This document shows, one piece after another, positions 42,757 through 53,948 of a stretch of DNA of 64,000 bases. The translations under genes and the position numbers were made by a program. The notes beneath the pieces are model-generated. The model made no database searches. It had not been told where the DNA came from and was given only the letters and a program-made list of their open reading frames with translations. The number at the start of each line of letters is the position of its first letter. Position 1 is the first letter of the stretch. Source of the DNA: Cafeteria roenbergensis (taxonomy: Eukaryota; Sar; Bigyra; Bicosoecida; Cafeteriaceae); the NCBI GenBank assembly GCA_008330645.1, contig VLTN01000067.1, positions 62,001 to 126,000 of the forward strand, given 5' to 3'.

Positions 42757-44811
42757 TCACACACGCCCGCCCTGTTTCTGCAAAGCCTTCTTGCGCCTAT
42801 CATGCTTGCCTGCATGCTGGCTGCTGCCGGCTCCGCGGCCACGACCCCGACCCCTGCCTCGCCCGCCACTGGAAACGCTGCCGCTGTCGCCCGTGGTGGC
42901 TGGGCCAGCGCCTCCCCTGCCGTGGCTTCCGCGGCCACGGCTGCTGCTGCTGCCGCTGCCGCCACCGCCGCCGCCGCTGCCGCTGCCGCCAGACCGCCGG
43001 CCTCCGCTCGGGCCGCCTGCGGAAGCCGCTGCCGCCGCGCCGCCGCCGTCGCCTCCCCCTCTTGTTGCCCCCCTGCTGCTGCTCGAGCCGCGGCCCGCAC
43101 GGTCGCCGCCGTGGTGGCCACCGGACTCCCGCTCGTCCTCGTGCGTGGCCCCCGCCGCCTCCACCGCGCCGCCTGTGCCATCCGCCAGCGAGTCATCTAC
43201 CTCGTCATTGTACTCGTCAAAGGCTTGCAACCGCGCGAGCTGGAGCGTCCGCGCTCGGAGGGCTGGAGTCATTCCCATCGACGAGGCCTTGCGCGCCGCT
43301 GCCGAAGCGCCTGAGCGGCCCGAGGCGGTTGATGCTCCGCCGCTGCTGCTCCGGCGAAGGAGGCTCGGCGCCGAGAGCGCGTCGCCGCCGCGAGACGGGA
43401 GGAGCGACAGGGCGTCTCTCACTGACGAGCGGGCCGCGGCTGGGACAGTGTCGTCCGCCAGCGCGCTGCTGAGGGCCTCGCGCAAGCCGCAGCGGCCGGA
43501 CCACAGCAGCAGCAGCCGGGCAGACTCCTGCCCGAACCCGCCACGCGACGCGCCTTCGGGAGTGGGAGCCGGGTTGCCGTCCGTGACACGGAGCGTGCCC
43601 ACCAGCCACAAGAGGGCCCTTCCGGCCGCCCGTGGGCTGCGGCGGACCCAGCCGGCGGCTGCGTCGCCCCCCCCGGCCGGGGCGCCGGCGCCCGAGGCCA
43701 TGGCAGCGAGGTCCCCTGGCCCGCATGGAGGGGTGTAGGGCCAGCGCGGGGCGGGGTCGCTGACGCCAGGCGCGCCGGCAGGGGACCCCGCCGGCCGCGC
43801 CGGCACCCCGAGAGGCTCGAGCGCGGCCCACACCGCCGCCACGTGGACCGCCGACACCACCGCCTCCACGCAAGCCGCCACGACTCCGGCGGCCTCGGAT
43901 GACCCGTCTCTCGCCGCGTCGGCCGCCGCGCGTATGAGTGTGGTCTGCGCGAGGGCCCGCAGGGCGGGGAGCAGAGGCGCCGGGGAGGAGCCGCCCGCGC
44001 TGCCCTCGTCCTCCTTGGGCACGAGCAGGTCGTCGGCCAGTGCTGGCAGAGCGCCCACGGCACGCGCCACGGTGGAAGTGACATCGGCGATGTAGCGGAT
44101 CGTGCTGAGGCGCGCGTCCGCGCCGGCCGGCCCCGGGGGCGCCGCGGAGTACTGCGCGCCGGCCTGGTCCAGGCACTGGGCGATGGTGTCCTGCATGGCG
44201 CCGACGTCCGCGCGGAGGGCGGGAAGCACCGTCACAGCGCATGCGAGAAAGCCCCGCATGAGCAGGGAGGCCGGCGCGGTCTGGCGCTTCCGGTCCGCCA
44301 GGGGCGAGACCACGGCCGCAGTGGCGGGACTCGAAAATGCCGCTGCCAGGTCCAGCAGCAGCGGCGCGTCCACCGCCCAACGGTCGTACAGCAGCTGCGA
44401 CCATGCGCGGGCCACCGCCTCGCGCGAAGGAATGTCCCCCGTGAGACGCAGCACGGCCCTCCAGGCGGCATCCTTGCCGAGGGCTTCGTGTTCGCCGGCG
44501 ACGAGGCGACACAAAATCAGGAGCGCGCGCGCTCGCACGTCGTCCAGAAGCCCCCGCGCGCCCGCTGCAGCCTCCTCCCCGTCGCTCTCGCGAGGAGCGC
44601 TTGAGAGTGACGCGAGGAAGGCGCGCAGGGAGCCCTCCCGCGGGTCCAGCGCCACGGCGGCGAACTCGCCAAAGGGCATGTGCAGCATCTCGTCAAGCCG
44701 GCCGGCCGCGAAGGACAGCGCGTCCATCCCCATGCCGTCGGCCTCGTCCCCCGGGAGGTACGGTGGGAGGCACGCCTGCGCCGCGCCAGGGAGGGCGGCG
44801 AGGTCTGCCAT
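42757..44811 (-). CDS. ASCC2: ASCC2/Cue3-like protein (ribosome-rescue trigger complex)
   Basis: 684 residues from the ATG at 44811; the frame continues upstream but runs through the divergent promoter and into the next gene. The N-terminal helical region matches the ASCC2 pattern: SFAAGRLDEMLHMPFGEF against the human DLDWLLALPHDKFW region, and WSQLLYDRWAVDAPLLLDLA against FGEILYNNFLFDIPKILDLC. Later comes RLQAFDEYNDEVDDSL, like the YEDEYDDTYD block, and a basic C terminus (HDRRKKALQKQGG) like human NHNRRTMADRKRSKG. ASCC2 binds ubiquitin and helps split collided ribosomes. The expected CUE domain is not clearly visible here. The tail is Gly/Ser/Arg-rich with an RG repeat. Assignment is by eye and not certain. 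Confidence 0.68.
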   Translation of the reverse strand: MADLAALPGAAQACLPPYLPGDEADGMGMDALSFAAGRLDEMLHMPFGEFAAVALDPREGSLRAFLASLSSAPRESDGEEAAAGARGLLDDVRARALLILCRLVAGEHEALGKDAAWRAVLRLTGDIPSREAVARAWSQLLYDRWAVDAPLLLDLAAAFSSPATAAVVSPLADRKRQTAPASLLMRGFLACAVTVLPALRADVGAMQDTIAQCLDQAGAQYSAAPPGPAGADARLSTIRYIADVTSTVARAVGALPALADDLLVPKEDEGSAGGSSPAPLLPALRALAQTTLIRAAADAARDGSSEAAGVVAACVEAVVSAVHVAAVWAALEPLGVPARPAGSPAGAPGVSDPAPRWPYTPPCGPGDLAAMASGAGAPAGGGDAAAGWVRRSPRAAGRALLWLVGTLRVTDGNPAPTPEGASRGGFGQESARLLLLWSGRCGLREALSSALADDTVPAAARSSVRDALSLLPSRGGDALSAPSLLRRSSSGGASTASGRSGASAAARKASSMGMTPALRARTLQLARLQAFDEYNDEVDDSLADGTGGAVEAAGATHEDERESGGHHGGDRAGRGSSSSRGATRGGGDGGGAAAAASAGGPSGGRRSGGSGSGGGGGGSGSSSSRGRGSHGRGGAGPATTGDSGSVSSGGRGRGRGRGRGAGSSQHAGKHDRRKKALQKQGGRV

Positions 44812-45105
44812 CGCAATCGCGCACTCGCCGAGATCGGCCGACTGGCCGCTCGCGCGCACCGCGAGGGCCGGCGGAGGGGTGGAGGAGGCGAGTAAGGTGC
44901 GCGGGGCGCAGAGGGCTCGCGCTCTCCCGCGCGCTGCGCGGAGACTGGGCTGTGCGTGGGCGGCTGGAGGCGCCGGCCCTCTCCGTTCCGCCCCGTGTTT
45001 GTGGCAGGGCTCTGCCTGGGCCTCCGGACTGCACTCGCCGCAGTCGGGCGATTTGTGGGCCTGTTCCCAGGCGAGCCGGCTGCCGGGAGGGACAGCGTGC
45101 TCACC

Positions 45106-48100
45106 ATGGCCGCCGCTGCGGCTGAAGGGTCCGTTCCGTTCGGGGTTGGGGACCGCATTCTCATCCAGGGCCGCCACATTGGTCTGGTGAAATTCCTCGG
45201 TGAGCCGGATCTGGGAGTTTTGCCCCCTCCTTGGCCCCCGTGGCTGGGGCCAACGCCGCCCCGGCCTCGCGCTCTGCGCCAGGCGTGCCCGCTGTGCCGC
45301 GAGCAGCAGTGCGGGAGGGGGGGTGGCTGCCCGGCGCGGCCTGCACGCCCGCGGGCAGCGTCGTGAGGGCCAGCCGACGTGTGCTGGTCGCCAAACGGCC
45401 ACACCCCGTCTCAGGCGACTCGGTGGCCCGGCTTGCCGCCGCCGGCCCTGCGCCTCCCCGGGGCTCCCGCCCCTGAGATAGCCGGCACGCCAGCAGCACC
45501 TTGCAAGCGCGGAGGCCGCCGGCAGGGACCGGGGCTTTGACCAGCGACCCCGCCCCGATGCCGGTTGGGCTTGCGACGACGAACGCGCCTGCCTCCGCCC
45601 GCCAGCGCTGCGTCGGGCGCTCCCGCCGCCACGCGCGGCCCGGGCGCGCTGCACGAGGACCCGCGCCGTTGGCAGCGCCGGGAGGGCCTGCCGGGGCAGC
45701 CTGGCTTGGCCCCCGCTGCCTTGCCGCTGCACTCAAGTGCGTCGTGCCGCCGACGCGGTCATCTGGCATTGCGTCCTCGCATCAGTCAGTCGCCCCGCCG
45801 CTGCCTGCGCCCGAGCGCCGCCCCGCGCCCTCGCCGCCGGCGCGTGCTCTTGCACCGACGCAGCTCCCTGCACTGCTCGCTGCCCCGCCCGCTGATGCGC
45901 AGGCAAGACTCGGTTTGACCCGCAAAATCGCCTGTGGGTGGGTGTCGAACTGGAGCGCCCCATCGGCAAGCACGACGGCACGGTCAAGGGCCAGTTTTAT
46001 TTCGAGTCCAAGCCCAAGCACGGGACCTTCGTTGCTCCCGCGCAATGCGAGCCTTACACCGAGGAGAAGGCTGCCGCGCGCAAGATTCAGGCGACGGCGC
46101 GCATGCGCATGGCGCGCAAGAAGGTCAAGGAGGAGGTGCACTGGCGCGCATTCAACATGATCGACAACCAGGACGAGCACATGTCTCGCCAGCGCCACCA
46201 GCGCATCTTTGCTGCCGGCCTGGGCGCAACGGCGCGCCTGAGCCGCGCGGTCAAGGCAAGGCTGCTCTCCGAGGCCGAGCGCCTGCCCGAGGTGCCCTCG
46301 GCCCCGACCCTCACCATGCCGCGCCCCACCCGCGCGGAGCTCGTGGCCCTCATTTCCTACTTCCGCGGCGGCGGCGTGCTGCCGTACAAGCAGGTCATCC
46401 GCCTGCTCAACCACTACGAGCGCCTGGCGGCGGAGCTCCCCACCATGCAGCTCACCACAGTGGGCGACGGCGAGCGCCTCACAATTGTGGGCGACACGCA
46501 CGGCCAGCTGCAGGACCTCTACTCGATCTTCACCATCAACGGCCTCCCCTCCAGCACCAACCGCTACCTCATCAACGGCGACTTCGTCGACCGCGGGCCC
46601 AACGGCGTCGAGGTGGTGCTCACGCTCTTTGCGATGCAGCTGCACGACCCCAGCTCCATAATCCTCAACCGCGGAAACCACGAGGAGCGCTCCCAGAACG
46701 AGACGGGCGGCTTCATGACCGAGGTGCTCTCCAAGTACAAGGACGCGGGGCCCGGCTCTGCAGGCGCCCACGACGCCGAGGGGTGGGCCTCCGTGGCCGC
46801 AGGCTCGTCCCCCACGGCCTCGGACGCTGCTCGCGCGGGCACGTACACCGCCGCCGAGCGCGGGGCCGGCCGCGCGGTGGGCGTCTACGAGAGCTTCCAC
46901 AGCTGCTTCGACGCCCTGCCGCTCTGCACGCTCATCGAGAAGCACGGCTTGCGCGTCTTCGTGGTGCACGGCGGCCTCTTCGACCGCGAGCACAACGTCA
47001 AGCTGGACCACATTGCCGCGGTCACGCGCAAGCGGGAGATCCCCTGGGGCCGCGAGAGCCTGGAGGACACGCTGTTCGAGGACATGGTGTGGTCCGACCC
47101 CAGGGACGACATCCGGGGAACGGAGCCCAGCTCCCGCGGGGCCGGCGTCTTTTTCGGGGAGGACATCACCGAGCGCTTCTGCGCCCAGAACGGCGTGTCC
47201 CTCGTCGTGCGCTCGCACGAGTGCGTCAAGGAGGGCTACCGCTACCAGCACAAGCAGCGCTGCCTCACCATCTTCTCGGCATCAAAGTACTGCGGCACGT
47301 CCACCAACTCGGGCGCGTTCATCGTCTTTGACCCGGACCTCACCAACGTGGTGCAGCAGTTCGTCGCCGGCGACCTCAAGTCCACGGACCCGCAGTACCA
47401 CTCCGACGACGCGGCCGCCGCCCCCCTGGAGGCCGTCCCTGCGCCCTCCGCCGACGCCTCGAAGGAGGAGGTGGAGCGCCAGGCTCGCGCCAACCGCGAC
47501 AAGATCATCGAGCGGATCGTGCTCAAGAAGCCCGACCTCTTCTGGTACTTCACGCACCAGGACACCGAGGGCAAGGGCCGCGTCTCGCGGAAGGAGCTCG
47601 CCGAGGGCCTGGCCACCGTCCTCAAGATGCCCGACCTCCCCTGGACGACGCTCTCGTACGACCTGGTCGAGTCGGAGCCCGACGGCAGCATCAACTACAC
47701 CCTGTTCCTGGAGCGCTACCGCATCGCCATGCGGGAGGAGGACTCGGGCTGGCAGGACGCCATCATCCAGCGCGTTTGCCGTCGCCTCTTCAGCGTCTGC
47801 TCCGACCTCAAGGGCGCGTACCGCATCTTCGACGTCAACGAGGACGGAAGGATCGAGTACGCGGAGTTCGTGCAGGCCATGGAGAAGCTGGACGTTGGCC
47901 TGACGCGTCCGCAGCTGTACGAGCTGATGCGCTCCATCGACCGCGACAAGGACGCGCACATTGACTTTGATGAGTTCGCCGCCAGATTCAAGGTCGTCTT
48001 CACCAGGTTCAAGGCGGACGGCGCGCAGGCGCGGTCCCTGAGCAAGGCCATCGGCTCCCCGCACTCCTCCCCGCGCGGAGGGGCGTCGGATGCCTCCGCG

Positions 48101-48796
48101 GGCACCTCCGACGAGAGCGAGTTTGTGCCCGACGACTGGACCAGAGACGCCCTCACGCGCGTTGGACAGCACCTCTTCGCCGGGGGCCGCAACGTCGCTC
48201 AGGTGTTCACCTCCATCGACAAGGACGGCGACAAGACGGTCAGCCTCGACGAGTTCGTGTCCGCCCTCGACTCCCTCAAGCTGGACCCGCCCTTCTCCCG
48301 GGACGATGCCAAGCGCCTGCTCGACGTGATCGACACCACCGGGTCGGGCCGCATCAACTACGTGGAGTTCCTGGACGCCTTCAAGGTCGTGGACTCCGCC
48401 ACCCTTCCCACGGACGTGGACGACGCGGAAGAGTCCCTCTGGCAGCGCCGCGTCATCGAGAAGGTCGTCAGCGTCCTTTACGAGTACCGCATCGAGCTCA
48501 GGGCCGCATTCGAAAAGTTTGACCTGGATGGCTCCGGCACTGTGTCCAAGGACGAGTTCCGCCTCGGCCTCCGCGCCCTCACCGCCGCCTTGGGCTCCCC
48601 CATGTCGGACATGCAGGCGGACGAGCTGCTCGAGGCGCTGGACAAGAACGGCGATGGCCTCCTGTCCTACCAGGAGTTCCTCGACGGCTTCCAGATCGTC
48701 GACGTCGGCGACGGCTCCCCAGAGTCGTCCCCGAGGGGAGACTCGCCCTCTGGGGCTGCGGCCGCTGCGGCCAGCTCCGGTGCAGCGCGGCGCTAG
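45106..48796 (+). CDS. CAP-Gly + IQ + PPP phosphatase + multi-EF-hand fusion
   Basis: Two exons, 45106-45199 and 45903-48796, give 995 residues. The 703-bp intron (GTGAGC...CAG, in phase) splits a CAP-Gly domain (about 12-80): GRHIGLVKFLG, then RLWVGVELERP, IGKHDGTVKGQFYF and KHGTFV. An IQ motif follows (AARKIQATARMRMARKKVKEE region, about 85-112). Next is a PPP-type catalytic domain with every metal and catalytic motif: GDTHG (228-232), GDFVDRG (257-263), RGNHEE, VHGGLF and RSHE. From about residue 585 on there are seven EF-hand loops (DTEGKGRVSRKE, DVNEDGRIEYAE, DRDKDAHIDFDE, DKDGDKTVSLDE, DTTGSGRINYVE, DLDGSGTVSKDE, DKNGDGLLSYQE), not all with full ligands. IQ-PPP-EF is the PPEF/RdgC plan; the CAP-Gly module and the number of EF-hands are additions. 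A Ca2+-regulated phosphatase on microtubule ends or tubulin tails is the natural inference. Confidence 0.92.
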
Positions 48797-49113
48797 AGCG
48801 GCTGCGCCGCGGTCCCGCTCGCTTCCTTCCCCCCCCGCCTCTCCCTTTCCCCTTTGTGTTCGTCAGTGAAATTGTTCTTCGGCCTTGGGCTCGTTTGGCT
48901 GCCCAGCCCCTGGCGCCGGAAAGCTCGACGGCGGCAAACACGCGCCCGTTCGCTCGCCCGCCCTGGTGCCGCCGGCCTGCCGCCCGGTGGCACGCACACA
49001 CACCCACACGCACACATGCACACACACAGTCGGCATCCATAGCCTCGGGCTTTGGAGCGACGCAACCCAGTGCCTATGGCCGGCGATGGTCCACGCTCGG
49101 GACACCGGCCAGC
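48797..49113. other. Convergent 3' spacer with CA-rich repeat
   Basis: 317 bp between the phosphatase and LYAR stops. A cacacaca/cacgcaca-rich stretch lies at about 48993-49030. No gene is seen. Confidence 0.5.
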
Positions 49114-49983
49114 CTAGGCCGCCTTCTTGCTCTTCTTCTCCTTCTTCTCCTTCTCCTTCTTCTCCTTCTTCTCCTTCTTCTCCTTCTTGTCCCGCTTGTC
49201 CCGCTTGGATCGCTCGGCGCCCTCAGCCGCAGCGGCGGCGTCTTCGCCGTCTTCAGCATCGCGGGCCTCCCGGCTCCGCTTCCGGCTCTCAGTTGCTGGC
49301 GTGGCAGCTTCACTGGAGGCAGCAACGCTGGCACTGGACGCCCCAGCAGCCGCGGCGGCTGCAGCCCCAGCGCCAGCTTCGGCGGCTGCAGCCGCAGCGC
49401 CCGGCGTCGACCCCGCTGGCTTGGGCCGGAAAGCCTCGATTGCGTTCCACAGCGCGTCCACCTGCCCAGGAGGGATGCGCAGGGAGTTGGCAGCAAAGTT
49501 GGTGAACTTGCCGCGCTTCCTTGGGCAGTTGCCCAGCGAAATGAGGCGCCCGACCTGCATCCTGATGAACTTGGGCACGGACTCATCGGCCGCGGCCACC
49601 TCCAGCTGCGAGTTCCACGCATCCTGGGGCGACTGTTTCCCCTTGGGTCCGCCCTTGTACAGCGCGCCCATGTACTTTTCAGCCTCCGAAACGCACTTGG
49701 GGTGCGACTGGTAGGACTCCCCTTCAAAGCTCTTCCCACAGTCCACGCACGTCAAAACGTGGCACTGGGGGCATTTCCTGCGGTAGTGGGCCTCTACCTG
49801 CGCAAGGCAGTGTCACCGCCACGAGAAGCGGGCGCGGGGTTGGGGCCGGCAAACGAGGCGCAACGACAAGCAGCAGAGCCGCCGCAGCCCCGGACGACCC
49901 CAGCCCGGCGTGGCGCGGGCAGCCCTGCGAACCTTGGAAAACTTGACCGAGTCCTGGCATGCCTGGCAGATGAAAACGGACAT
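49114..49983 (-). CDS. LYAR: LYAR-type zinc-finger protein
   Basis: Two exons, 49983-49933 and 49797-49114, give 244 residues. The 135-bp intron is placed by family continuity (SVKFSK/VEAHYRRKCPQC) and has a GTTCGC donor, unlike the GTGAG donors elsewhere, with a CAG acceptor. The two LYAR zinc fingers are complete: FICQACQDSVKFSK with KVEAHYRRKC, and CHVLTCVDCGKSF with HPKC. The WNSQLEVAA and KFTNFAANSLRI blocks of the family follow. The tail is Ala-rich and then a long KKEKKEKKEK run coded by a TTCTCC-type repeat (49127-49193). LYAR homologues are nucleolar and act in rRNA processing and ribosome biogenesis. The protein is shorter than human LYAR (379 residues). Confidence 0.9.
49127..49193. 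repeat. TTCTTCTCC-type pyrimidine repeat coding a Lys/Glu tail
   Basis: Imperfect tandem TTCTTCTCC/TTCTCC units; the minus strand reads AAGAAGGAG and codes the KKEKKE tail of LYAR. Confidence 0.85.
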
Positions 49984-50128: not shown

Positions 50129-52950
50129 ATGCCCCCCAAGCGTGTCCGCAAGCCCACCAAGGGCAAGCCGGGCAAGGGCAAGCCGGTCAAGGCCGCGCCT
50201 GCACTCACGGTGCCTCCCGAGGAAGTCAGCCAGGACTTGCCGCCGCGCGAGGCCAAGCTCCTGCGCGAAATCTCCGTGAGCCCCAGGAGCGAGCCAGGGC
50301 CGATGCCGGATGTTGCGTGCGGTCTTCGCGTGCGCGAGGTTCCGTCGCGCGCAAGCTCGCACGCGAAGCCGCTGGCACGGCTGCCAGTCTCGAGTGCGAC
50401 TCGTCAGCACCGCTCCTGTTGAAACACTGCAAGGCTGTGCTCGGCCAGCGGCCCCGGTAGTGCCCGGCTCGTGCGTGCATGGTCGCCTTCGACCCCTGTG
50501 TGCGTGGCTTGCTGCCCGTGTTGCCGCAGCGCGAGTATGAGGCCGGCCAGTACAAGCGAGCAACCAAGACTGCGGACACGATCCTGGCCAAGTTCCCCCA
50601 CCAGGGCGGTGAGTCTTAACGCAGGGCAACACGTGCCCGCAAGCGCCAATGGCGCTATTCTGCATCACCGGCGACCGCTGCAGCCGCAATGTCCCGCGCG
50701 CCCCCAGCCGAGGACGCCGCCCACGCACCCCGCCATGCTGCGAACCACGCCGATGCCCCTCTCCCCGCGGGCTCGCCCCGTTCCCCGGTGCGGCCACCAC
50801 GAGACCCCGCCCTGGCCCCACTTCATCTGTTTTGCCTTTGACCACCCGCCTCCGCCTCCGCCTCCGCCTCCGCCTCCGCCTCCGCCCTGCAGAGACGCTC
50901 GCCCTCAAGGCCCTCTGCATCTACAAGATGAACATGAAGAAGGAGGCCCTGGAGATGGTGGAGCACTCCAAGCTGCTCAACCGCAAGACGCACCTCACGT
51001 GGCACGTGTCTGGGATCCTCTTCAAGCAGGAGAAGCGCTACGCCGAGGCCGTCCCCATGCTCAGCATGGCGGCAACCGTGTCCGAGCGCCTCAACGGCCG
51101 GCCCAACGACAGCCTCCTCCGCGAGGTGGCCTTCCTCCACCTCCACCTCCGGGACATGGACGCCTTCCACGTGGCGGCTCACCAGCTCATGCAGAGCAGC
51201 TCTGCCGCAAAGCAGCGCTCCACCTGGCACACGTGCGCGCTCGCGAACCACCTCGTCGGCTACACGGACGTGGCCACGCAGGTGCTGCTGAGCCGCAGCG
51301 CGATGGACGAGGAGCAGCGCCTCTCGAACATCGACAAGGCGGCCAAGGACGCCGCAGCCCGCGCCGCGAAGCGGGGAGAGGACCCCGAGGCCGCCGCCGC
51401 CGCCGCCACGCTCGAGGAGGACAGCCAGCACCGCCCCACCGCCGACGAGCACGACACGGCCATGACCGAGTGCACGATGCTCTCCGAGGCCGGCCGCGTT
51501 GAGGACGCGTCCAAGGCCCTCGAGGCTGCCTGCATCCGCGGCCACGTGCTCTCCGAGGAGGAGGCCGACTCCATGCGCGCGGCCTTTGCCCTCCGCATGG
51601 GCGACGTGGACGCGGCCCGCGCCGCATTCTCGCGCCTTGCAGCCACCTTCCCCGAGGACATCACCTGGGTGGCGGGCCTGGTTCGCTGCGAGCTGGGCTT
51701 CGTGCCGCTCGAGTTCGCCCCCCGCGCCGTGGGCGCCACCGGCTCCCCGGCCATCCCCGCCGCCTCCGACGCCGCGGCCGGCATCTGGCGCGAGCCCTCC
51801 ATGGCCGGCGGCCAGCAGATCCACCTCCCCTTCGCCCCCCTCGGCACGGACGCCTTCCCTCTCGCCGACGAGCCCCTCACTGCAGAGCAGGCTGCCGTCG
51901 TCTCCGGCGTCATCGCCGGCCTCGCTGCCGCCGCGCCCCGCTCCTACGCCCTCCGCTCCCTCCCCCTCCGCTTCCTCCCGCCCTCCGACCCCGCCTTCGC
52001 CGCGGCCATCGACCGCACCGTCCGGGACGCCGTCCGCCGCGGCAAGGAGAGCGCCGTCGCGGTGCTCGAGCCCCTCTACGCCGCTGCGGAGGCTTCAGCG
52101 GGCGGCCTGGCCTCCATCGCCGCCGACCCCCGCGTCGCGACCATCGGCGCCCGACTGGCCTCTCTCGCTGACCCGGCCATGGACGCCCTCGCCGCCGACC
52201 CGGACGCCGGGTCCGTCGTTTTCCCCGCCCCCCTCGACGGCGCCGCTCCCGGCACTGCCGGCGAGCCCGCCGCCGACGCCGCGGAGGCCGTGTCCGTCAT
52301 CCCCCTGGCCCTCCTCCTCCACAGCGAGCACCTCGTGCGGTGCTGCGCCCCCGCCGAGGCCCTCCCCCGCCTCGACGCCGCCATCCGCCACACCCCCACC
52401 CTCCCCGCCCTCCACCTCTGCCGCGCACGCGCCCTTGGCGCCATGGGCGCGTGGGTCGACGCCGCGGACGCCGCAGACACCGCCCGCACCCTTGACCTCG
52501 CCGACCGCGCCGCCTCGGTCGCCGCCGTCCAGTGCATGCTGCGGGCCGGCCAGCACGACCGCGCCTGGGACGCCGTGCTCGTCTTCGCCCGCCCCGACTC
52601 CGAGGCCACCGCCTACTTCCGCTCCATGATCACCTTCTGGATGACGCTCGCCACCGCGCGCGCTCTCGAGGAGAGCGGCCTCATTGGCCGCGCGCTGCGC
52701 CGCTACCAGTGGCTCTGCGAGCAGGCCGAGTCGGTGCACAACGACGCCCTCGACTTCTACAGCTACGCGCTGCGCATGTCCAGGATCCGCTCGGCACTGC
52801 GCCTGCTGCGCTGGACCGAGGCCGCGCCCACGATGGAGGTGTTCGTGGAAGCCAGAGCCGGCGCCACGCGCTGCTGGCTCAGGCTCGAAGACGACGTCAG
52901 CGTCCGGACCGACGACATCGGGTGCCCCCTGCCCCCAGCGGAGGGCACGC

Positions 52951-52982
<32 letters not shown>

Positions 52983-53948
52983 TCCTCGGATGACGCCGCC
53001 AAGGACGCCAAGGACGCCCGCCGCGCCATGAAGCGGCTGCGCGCCAACGAGGCCAAGGCCGTGGCGGCGGCCAAGCTCAAGGTCCGTGACGCCGAGGACC
53101 TCCTCCCGGAGGCCGACCCCCACGGCGTCGAGCTCACCAGCGACGCCAACCCGCTCGCCCGCGCCGGAGCAGAGGCCCAGACCCTCGTCGCGCACGTGCA
53201 GCGCGCCACCGCCCGCGCCGCTGGCGGCACCACCCCCGTCCCCGCCCGCGCCGCCATCCTTGCCGCGGCCAACGGCGCTGACGTCGCCCTCCGCCGCTCC
53301 AAGCCGATCCTCGCCCTTCGGGCCTTCGCGGCGGCCCGCCCCCTCTTGGTGCCAGCCCCCGGCGCGTCGCCCAGCCCTGCCCCGGGCCTGGATGCCGCCC
53401 TCCTCCGCTGCCCGGAGGTCGCCCCGCTCGCCGCCCGCTTCCTCCGCATGGCCGCCGACCCCGCCGCCCGCGCTGCGTGGCCCCCTGCTGTCGTGGCCGT
53501 CGTCGACGCGGCCCGCGCTGACCCTGCCTGGACCGCTGGCGCCGGTGCTGCTGCCACCGCTGCCGCTGCCGCTGGCACTGGCGCGGGCGTGGGAGCTGCT
53601 TCGGCCGGCCCGGCAGACGCCGCCTCCTTTGCCGCCTCCGTGGCGGACGATATCGCCCCCCTCGGCCTCTGGGCTCGCATCGCAGCCGCCAAGACTATTG
53701 CAGAGGCGGCAGGCGTTGCGCCCGCTGCCACCGCCTCGATCGCCTCCGCTGCCGTCACCGTGCCCGCCCGCGCAATCGAGCTCCTGGCCGATGTCACCAC
53801 GGGAGTCGTCTCCGCCGACGCCCTCGTGGCCGCCCGCAACCTCCTTCGCGCAATCGGCTCCGCCGAGGACGTCGCCGCGTTTGAGGAGCGTGCGCGCGCC
53901 GCGTGCCCGCTCGCGGACGCGTTCAAGCTTGGCTCGTCCGTCGAGTGA
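50129..53948 (+). CDS. NAA15: NatA auxiliary subunit NAA15 (N-terminal acetyltransferase)
   Basis: Three exons, 50129-50275, 50530-50608 and 50893-53948, give 1,093 residues (human 866). Introns are GTGAGC...CAG (254 bp) and GTGAGT...CAG (284 bp), in phase, and rebuild the family block LPPREAKLLREIS / REYEAGQYKRATKTADTILAKFP / GETLALKALCIY. TPR helices follow (KKEALEMVEHSKLLNRKTHLTWHVSGIL, then YAEAVPML, LLREVAFLHLHLRDM and WHTCALANHLVGY). A middle segment RFYSYALRM-like DFYSYALRMSRIRSALRLLRW and a KDAKDARRAMKRLRANEAKA helix near the NAA10/ribosome-binding region are present. NAA15 anchors the catalytic NAA10 to the ribosome. The N terminus adds a Lys-rich arm, and the C-terminal third is very Ala-rich. 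Confidence 0.9.
50846..50886. repeat. (CCTCCG)n microsatellite at an intron acceptor
   Basis: About seven units of cctccg lie directly before the CAG acceptor at 50890-50892 of NAA15 intron 2 and take the place of its polypyrimidine tract. Confidence 0.85.

What the first reader, a model, noticed from the sequence alone, without database searches (positions are those of the whole stretch)
45106..48796. CAP-Gly domain fused to a PPEF/RdgC-type phosphatase with seven EF-hand loops
One reading frame, joined over a single in-phase intron, links a CAP-Gly module (GKHDG variant, as I recall it also in tubulin cofactor E) to IQ, a complete PPP catalytic domain and about seven EF-hand-like loops. Known PPEF/RdgC enzymes have IQ, phosphatase and two or three EF-hands, and I know of none with CAP-Gly. 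CAP-Gly binds EEY/F tails of tubulin and EB proteins, so this looks like a Ca2+/calmodulin-controlled phosphatase aimed at microtubule ends, perhaps flagellar.
Basis: partly seen in the sequence, partly recalled or inferred. Interest (0 to 1): 0.85.

Follow-up and report, generated by a model that had tools for sequence, protein, structure and literature searches.

The report
Microtubule-tethered calcium-switched phosphatase in Cafeteria
A marine flagellate gene really does join a predicted microtubule-binding module to a calcium-controlled phosphatase, but the same combination has already been described in the parasite Toxoplasma, so it is a good new example of a known kind, not a new kind of enzyme.

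Summary
The spliced gene (exons 45106-45199 and 45903-48796) encodes 995 aa: CAP-Gly, IQ-like motif, complete PPP phosphatase, eight EF-hand loops in four pairs, six canonical. The fusion does not rest on the intron: 47 of 65 CAP-Gly profile positions lie in the phosphatase's own frame. It is best filed as PPEF/RdgC: RdgC is the best solved match of exon 2, it shares SAS where PP5 and PP1 have SAP, and a small tree groups them with moderate support, 88/88. A second gene in this genome (contig C11) repeats the architecture, with an intron at the same codon and phase. The assembly resembles Cafeteria strain BVI.

The novelty claim fails: one sentence in a 2022 paper gives Toxoplasma PP7 an N-terminal CAP-Gly before its calmodulin-binding motif, citing a 2009 review I could not see. 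The ligand is open: two alpha-tubulin frames and an EB1-like gene lack EEY/F ends, while two of three beta-tubulins end EGEY. Likely role: Ca2+/calmodulin-activated phosphatase tethered to microtubules; substrate unknown.

The parts
45106..45199 (+). exon 1: start codon and first part of the CAP-Gly domain (31 codons and the first base of codon 32)
   Evidence: Pfam CAP_GLY from profile position 1 in the spliced protein
45200..45902 (+). phase-1 GT-AG intron, 703 bp, inside the CAP-Gly domain; same codon and phase in the C11 paralogue
   Evidence: no RNA evidence
45903..48796 (+). exon 2: rest of CAP-Gly, IQ-like motif, PPP domain, EF-hand array, stop
45903..46048 (+). rest of the CAP-Gly domain, to residue 80 (GKHDG within)
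   Evidence: Pfam CAP_GLY 14-80
46085..46117 (+). IQ-like motif IQATARMRMAR (residues 93-103)
   Evidence: below Pfam cut-off; aligned with the RdgC IQ region
46475..47227 (+). PPP catalytic domain (Metallophos residues 223-473): GDTHGQ, GDFVDRG, NRGNHE, HGG, RSHE present
47561..47704 (+). EF-hand pair 1, poor loops (residues 585-596 and 621-632)
47831..47974 (+). EF-hand pair 2 (loops at 675 and 711), canonical
48218..48367 (+). EF-hand pair 3 (loops at 804 and 842), canonical
48521..48676 (+). EF-hand pair 4 (loops at 905 and 945), canonical; the pair that aligns with RdgC

Best explanation
The gene encodes a PPEF/RdgC-type Ser/Thr phosphatase whose N-terminal tether is a CAP-Gly domain. [quoted passage not shown] Here the CAP-Gly domain is proposed to take the tether's place: it holds the enzyme on microtubules or a microtubule-end protein by binding an acidic-aromatic C-terminal tail; a Ca2+ rise acts through calmodulin on the IQ helix and directly on the six canonical EF-hands, and switches on dephosphorylation of nearby cytoskeletal proteins. 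Shown here: open frames, domains, catalytic motifs, PPEF affinity, a paralogue with the same architecture and intron position. Inferred: the splice in RNA, microtubule binding, calmodulin binding, Ca2+ activation, substrate.
For: Domains over Pfam cut-offs in one protein. RdgC (8jfw) is the best of 491 distinct PDB sequences matched by exon 2, E 2.2e-58, with three aligned stretches: IQ region onward, second half of the catalytic domain, last EF pair. SAS motif (3 of 8 rows: window, C11, RdgC; the other 5 have SAP) and tree grouping with RdgC. The best solved matches of the CAP-Gly part are CLIPR-59, CLIP4 and Restin; at the positions where Restin has F, W, K, N, F it has F36, W43, K54, H55, F74 (that these line the ligand groove is recalled). 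Analogues, from passages: RdgC N-termini control location and activity (PMC6161916); Plasmodium PP7 is Ca2+-dependent and binds calmodulin (PMC11559042); Toxoplasma PP7, said to have CAP-Gly, was seen at the apical pole (PMC8785970).
Against: No EEY/F end on either alpha-tubulin frame or the EB1-like gene found; EGEY on two of three beta-tubulins only. The IQ motif is below the Pfam cut-off. In a 600-aa fragment without EF pairs 2-4, nine PP5 entries outscore RdgC, which is last of the ten listed (200.4 bits for the best PP5, 176.1 for RdgC). The tree has 8 rows, the RdgC and PP5 rows are pieced from two alignment stretches, and the RdgC grouping (88/88) does not reach the starred level. hyperLOPIT data cited in PMC8785970 predicted cytosol for Toxoplasma PP7, against the tagged protein at the apical pole. 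No transcript, localisation or activity data.
Confidence: 0.6

Rival explanations
1. The CAP-Gly domain tethers the enzyme to something other than microtubules (a membrane, or a non-tubulin protein with an acidic C-terminus), or serves as an internal or dimer contact; the enzyme is an ordinary Ca2+-dependent PPEF elsewhere in the cell.
For: No EEY/F end on the alpha-tubulin frames or the EB1-like gene found. The C11 paralogue keeps the architecture although its CAP-Gly has lost the aligned W, K and both F residues (one search read). CLIPR-59, the best solved CAP-Gly match, acts at membranes (recalled).
Against: In the window protein four of the five aligned Restin positions are kept. Tagged Toxoplasma PP7 lies at the apical pole, a microtubule-organising end (recalled).
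Confidence: 0.25
2. Two neighbouring genes read as one: a small CAP-Gly gene next to a separate phosphatase gene.
For: Exon 1 holds only 31 codons and part of the domain, and no RNA evidence is at hand.
Against: Profile positions 19-65 of CAP-Gly are in the phosphatase's own open frame; the first ATG of exon 2 lies after the CAP-Gly; a paralogue has the same fusion and intron position.
Confidence: 0.02
3. The enzyme is a PP5 relative that gained EF-hands and CAP-Gly independently and only resembles PPEF.
For: PP5 scores about as well as RdgC against exon 2 (197.7 and 200.9 bits) and better against a 600-aa fragment.
Against: No TPR model matched in the protein while the genome has a separate PP5 with TPR and PPP5 matches; SAS instead of SAP and grouping with RdgC in the tree; IQ and EF-hands in RdgC order.
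Confidence: 0.05

Closest known systems
Toxoplasma gondii PP7 (TGGT1_251850), as described in PMC8785970
   Same: PP7/PPEF-type phosphatase said to have an N-terminal CAP-Gly domain before a calmodulin-binding motif (one sentence); 117 kDa against 110 kDa (window gene) and 117 kDa (C11 paralogue)
   Different: Host lineage: alveolate against bicosoecid stramenopile.
Drosophila RdgC / animal PPEF
   Same: IQ region, PPP domain, C-terminal EF-hands in that order; best solved match of exon 2
   Different: RdgC has alternative, partly fatty-acylated N-termini; the aligned RdgC chain begins nine residues in, at the IQ region, leaving no room for CAP-Gly; one EF pair aligned against four pairs here
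Plasmodium falciparum PP7
   Same: IQ, PPP, EF-hands; Ca2+-dependent, binds calmodulin (passages)
   Different: Described with an IQ domain and two EF-hands, no CAP-Gly mentioned in the passages seen
Kinetoplastid PPEF (Leishmania, Trypanosoma)
   Same: PPP plus C-terminal EF-like domains in protists (passages)
   Different: Acylated N-terminus, no IQ, degenerate EF-hands; the Leishmania protein did not bind Ca2+
CLIPR-59 and CLIP-170 (Restin) CAP-Gly domains
   Same: CAP-Gly sequence with the F, W, K, F positions; GKHDG in CLIPR-59
   Different: Not joined to a phosphatase (recalled)

Membership tests
PPEF/RdgC phosphatases | PPP catalytic domain with the metal and catalytic motifs | tested here: met
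   Metallophos E 1.2e-26; GDTHGQ, GDFVDRG, NRGNHE, HGG, RSHE present
PPEF/RdgC phosphatases | catalytic domain closer to RdgC than to PP5 or PP1/PP2A | tested here: inconclusive
   For: 8-row tree groups window, C11 and RdgC (88/88, not starred) and SAS motif shared with RdgC. Against: PP5 outscores RdgC on a 600-aa fragment
PPEF/RdgC phosphatases | N-terminal IQ calmodulin-binding motif | tested here: inconclusive
   IQATARMRMAR aligned with the RdgC IQ region, but Pfam IQ 15.1 bits, cut-off 20.3; binding not tested
PPEF/RdgC phosphatases | two or more C-terminal EF-hands | tested here: met
   eight loops, six canonical
PPEF/RdgC phosphatases | Ca2+/calmodulin-dependent phosphatase activity | not testable with these tools
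   needs protein
PP5 | N-terminal TPR region | tested here: not met
   no TPR or PPP5 model at E up to 1; the genome's own PP5 on C21 matches both
CAP-Gly domain proteins | CAP-Gly profile over curated cut-off | tested here: met
   74.7 bits against 26.5
CAP-Gly domain proteins | GKNDG motif and aromatic groove residues | tested here: met
   GKHDG with aligned F, W, K, F kept and N to H, as in CLIPR-59
CAP-Gly domain proteins | binding of EEY/F tails | not testable with these tools
   candidate tails in the genome read: EGEY on 2 of 3 beta-tubulins, none on 2 alpha-tubulin frames and 1 EB1-like gene
CAP-Gly PPEFs (Toxoplasma PP7 type) | CAP-Gly N-terminal to an IQ-like motif and a PPP domain | tested here: met
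   CAP-Gly and PPP also in the paralogue, whose IQ is degenerate
CAP-Gly PPEFs (Toxoplasma PP7 type) | orthology with TgPP7 by sequence | not tested

The most novel reading that the evidence does not exclude
CAP-Gly-PPEF is an old phosphatase type of the stramenopile-alveolate line, here with EF-hands in four pairs, and in Cafeteria, where no EEY/F alpha-tubulin was found, it reads the aromatic tail of beta-tubulin (EGEY) instead of the alpha-tubulin tail: a Ca2+-gated phosphatase that marks beta-tubulin-defined microtubules.
Probability: 0.15. Interest if true: 0.6.

Novelty: new member of a known kind. Interest (0 to 1): 0.33.

Why it matters
It puts a CAP-Gly PPEF, twice, in what appears to be Cafeteria, a free-living, cultured bicosoecid flagellate. 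The only earlier statement of such a protein found in these searches is about Toxoplasma PP7, whose loss reduces parasite growth. If stramenopiles and alveolates share it by descent, a microtubule-tethered Ca2+ phosphatase would be older than parasitism and could be studied in a simple free-living flagellate. The intron shared by the two copies indicates that the fusion predates their duplication.

Tried and rejected
Separate-gene artefact: rejected, CAP-Gly profile positions 19-65 are in the phosphatase frame and the paralogue repeats the fusion.

Antisense and other long frames over the locus (for example 45782-47281 minus, 499 aa, and 47282-48862 minus, 526 aa): taken as by-products of high GC content; not searched one by one.

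NCBIfam matches of exon 2 (XopAW, deiodinase-related, PRK00166) are all below their curated cut-offs; taken as EF-hand and phosphoesterase cross-matches.

Relatives elsewhere: an alignment of window exon 2 and the C11 paralogue was used to scan viral contigs (33 pattern matches, 0 confirmed) and genome contigs (116 pattern matches, 0 confirmed). These are viral and prokaryotic collections and two patterns were used per scan, so the lack of a match says little about protists.

PPEF without CAP-Gly in this genome: none recognised among 13 matches to the window phosphatase, which fall on seven gene loci including the window itself, or 8 to the paralogue's. Apart from the two CAP-Gly genes these are the PP5 on C21 (Pfam) and four with RAHQ and SAP motifs, PP1/PP2A-like by my reading. 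These searches list best candidates only. CAP-Gly controls: the C31 CAP-Gly gene also appears split by an intron, but a few residues further on (my reading); the C59 match runs over profile positions 1-64 in one frame.

Prior-art searches: CAP-Gly with PPEF gave 2 papers, PMC8785970 and a neurodegeneration meta-analysis that I did not open; CAP-Gly with PP7 and Toxoplasma gave 1; CAP-Gly, calmodulin, IQ motif and phosphatase domain gave 0. Wider ones: 81 papers, 20 listed; 13; 21, 15 listed; 16, 8 listed; 7. The library misses most subscription journals. The 2009 review (Andreeva and Kutuzov) is not held, nor is the paper under PubMed id 28556455, which I recalled as the Yang and Arrizabalaga review; neither was seen.

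Full report
What is there. The gene starts at ATG 45106, the first ATG in its frame after a stop, and ends with the stop at 48794-48796. In the junction scan one GT-AG junction keeps the frame, donor at 45200 and acceptor ending at 45902 (703 bp, phase 1). The spliced product is 995 aa, 110 kDa. Pfam finds CAP_GLY at 14-80 (E 5.6e-21), Metallophos at 223-473 (E 1.2e-26) and EF-hands (EF-hand_7 E 8.7e-43). Exon 2 alone, in one frame of 966 codons without a stop, carries CAP_GLY profile positions 19-65 together with the phosphatase and EF-hands (E 3.7e-15 for CAP_GLY), so the fusion is read from the DNA without any splice model.

Anatomy. The CAP-Gly part is closest among solved structures to CLIPR-59 (1whh, E 1.1e-16), CLIP4 and Restin/CLIP-170 (34 distinct sequences matched). 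It has F36, W43, K54 and F74 where Restin has F, W, K and F, and H where Restin has N, as CLIPR-59 does. The IQ-like motif at residue 93 is weak by Pfam (15.1 bits, cut-off 20.3) but lies where the RdgC IQ region aligns. The phosphatase motifs GDTHGQ, GDFVDRG, NRGNHE, HGG and RSHE are present. Eight EF-hand loops sit in four pairs; six are canonical, the first pair is poor (a ninth pattern hit at residue 350, inside the phosphatase domain, was dropped).

Family. RdgC (8jfw, 8jfy) heads 491 distinct PDB sequences matched by exon 2 (60 shown; E 2.2e-58), with aligned stretches from the IQ region, the second half of the catalytic domain and the last EF pair. PP5 scores nearly as well there, and in a 600-aa fragment without EF pairs 2-4 nine PP5 entries stand above RdgC. 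In an alignment of eight PPP domains the window protein, its paralogue and RdgC share SAS where the two PP5, two PP1 and one PP2A-like rows have SAP; the tree sets these three apart from the other five with 88/88 support, which is moderate and below the starred level. No TPR model matched, and the genome has a separate PP5 with TPRs. I file it under PPEF/RdgC on the sum of these; calmodulin binding and Ca2+ dependence are untested.

A second copy. Searching the window's own assembly with CAP_GLY (7 matches) and with the phosphatase (13 matches) gave adjacent hits on contig C11. Splicing by eye at two GT-AG introns gives 1101 aa with CAP_GLY (44 bits, cut-off 26.5), Metallophos and EF-hands. 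BLASTP aligns window residues 14-528 and 556-993 with it at 33.6% and 27.3% identity. Its first intron interrupts the same Gly codon at the same phase. This supports the splice model in the window and indicates that the fusion predates the duplication. Its own CAP-Gly has lost the aligned W, K and both F residues (one search read) and its IQ has lost the Q, so it may no longer bind.

Organism. The assembly has 36,303,456 bases in 167 contigs and the window's 2-kb pieces are 66-76% GC. PMC6972860 (passages) lists Cafeteria strain BVI with 36,327,047 bp, 170 contigs, 70.1% GC and contig N50 460,467; contig C26 here is 460,467 bases long. I take it to be that strain; totals differ slightly (three contigs and about 24 kb fewer here).

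Novelty. [quoted passage not shown] I had no Toxoplasma sequence to confirm it. The paper places tagged PP7 at the apical pole, though it notes that hyperLOPIT had predicted cytosol. PMC8249667 (passages) says PPEFs were already reported in alveolates and oomycetes. So a CAP-Gly PPEF in a stramenopile flagellate is a new member of a described kind. Whether four EF pairs are new cannot be said; TgPP7, at 117 kDa, is long enough to have them too.

How it may work. [quoted passage not shown] Plasmodium PP7 is Ca2+-dependent and binds calmodulin (PMC11559042, abstract and passages). By analogy the CAP-Gly domain is the tether, and IQ and EF-hands are the switch. This is inference. The usual ligand is not obvious: of the two alpha-tubulin frames found, one ends DEGFA and the other EEEMDA; an EB1-like gene, found by a partial match below the family cut-off and read across one intron, ends DAEEI; of three beta-tubulins two end EGEY and one EDAEA. 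The names alpha and beta rest on recalled sequence signatures and on the 80% against 43-44% identities. The searches list best candidates only, so a further alpha-tubulin with EEY could have been missed.

Surroundings. Three neighbouring frames were looked at: the divergent minus-strand frame upstream (42760-44817) matched no Pfam family; downstream lie a LYAR-type zinc-finger exon on the minus strand and a NatA auxiliary subunit on the plus strand. None of the three bears on function.

Verdict. Observation confirmed, with the EF-hand count raised to eight. Interpretation partly supported: architecture and general role plausible, uniqueness contradicted in print, ligand open.

Noticed in passing
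G000:C26:384006-385358 (L036) and G000:C12:519568-520779 (L035): The two alpha-tubulin frames found end ...DEGFA and ...EEEMDA, not EEY/F, so the tyrosination cycle may be absent or altered here.
   Followed up: partly
G000:C4:165794-166960 (L028) and G000:C13:76339-77490 (L029): Two beta-tubulin genes end ...FDGMEGEY, an acidic-aromatic tail of the sort usual on alpha-tubulin (recalled); the third (C50, L030) ends EDAEA.
   Followed up: partly
L025 (minus strand), G000:C4:365321-365365: EB1-like gene, EBH domain split by an intron (profile match 25.4 bits, below the cut-off of 27), ending ...LVDAEEI rather than EEY/F.
   Followed up: partly
L021:2211-5863 (G000:C11:33710-37362): Paralogue with CAP-Gly, degenerate IQ, PPP and EF-hands; its CAP-Gly has lost the aligned W, K and F residues while the architecture is kept.
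   Followed up: yes
G000:C1:268495-268623 (L006): A CAP-Gly-like domain inside an open frame of 4239 codons, with an insert before the usual GKNDG region.
   Followed up: no
window 50613-53948 plus: Open frame of 1111 codons matching the NatA auxiliary subunit family (PF12569), 162 bits.
   Followed up: no
window 49114-49812 minus: LYAR-type C2HC zinc-finger exon with a lysine-rich tail.
   Followed up: no
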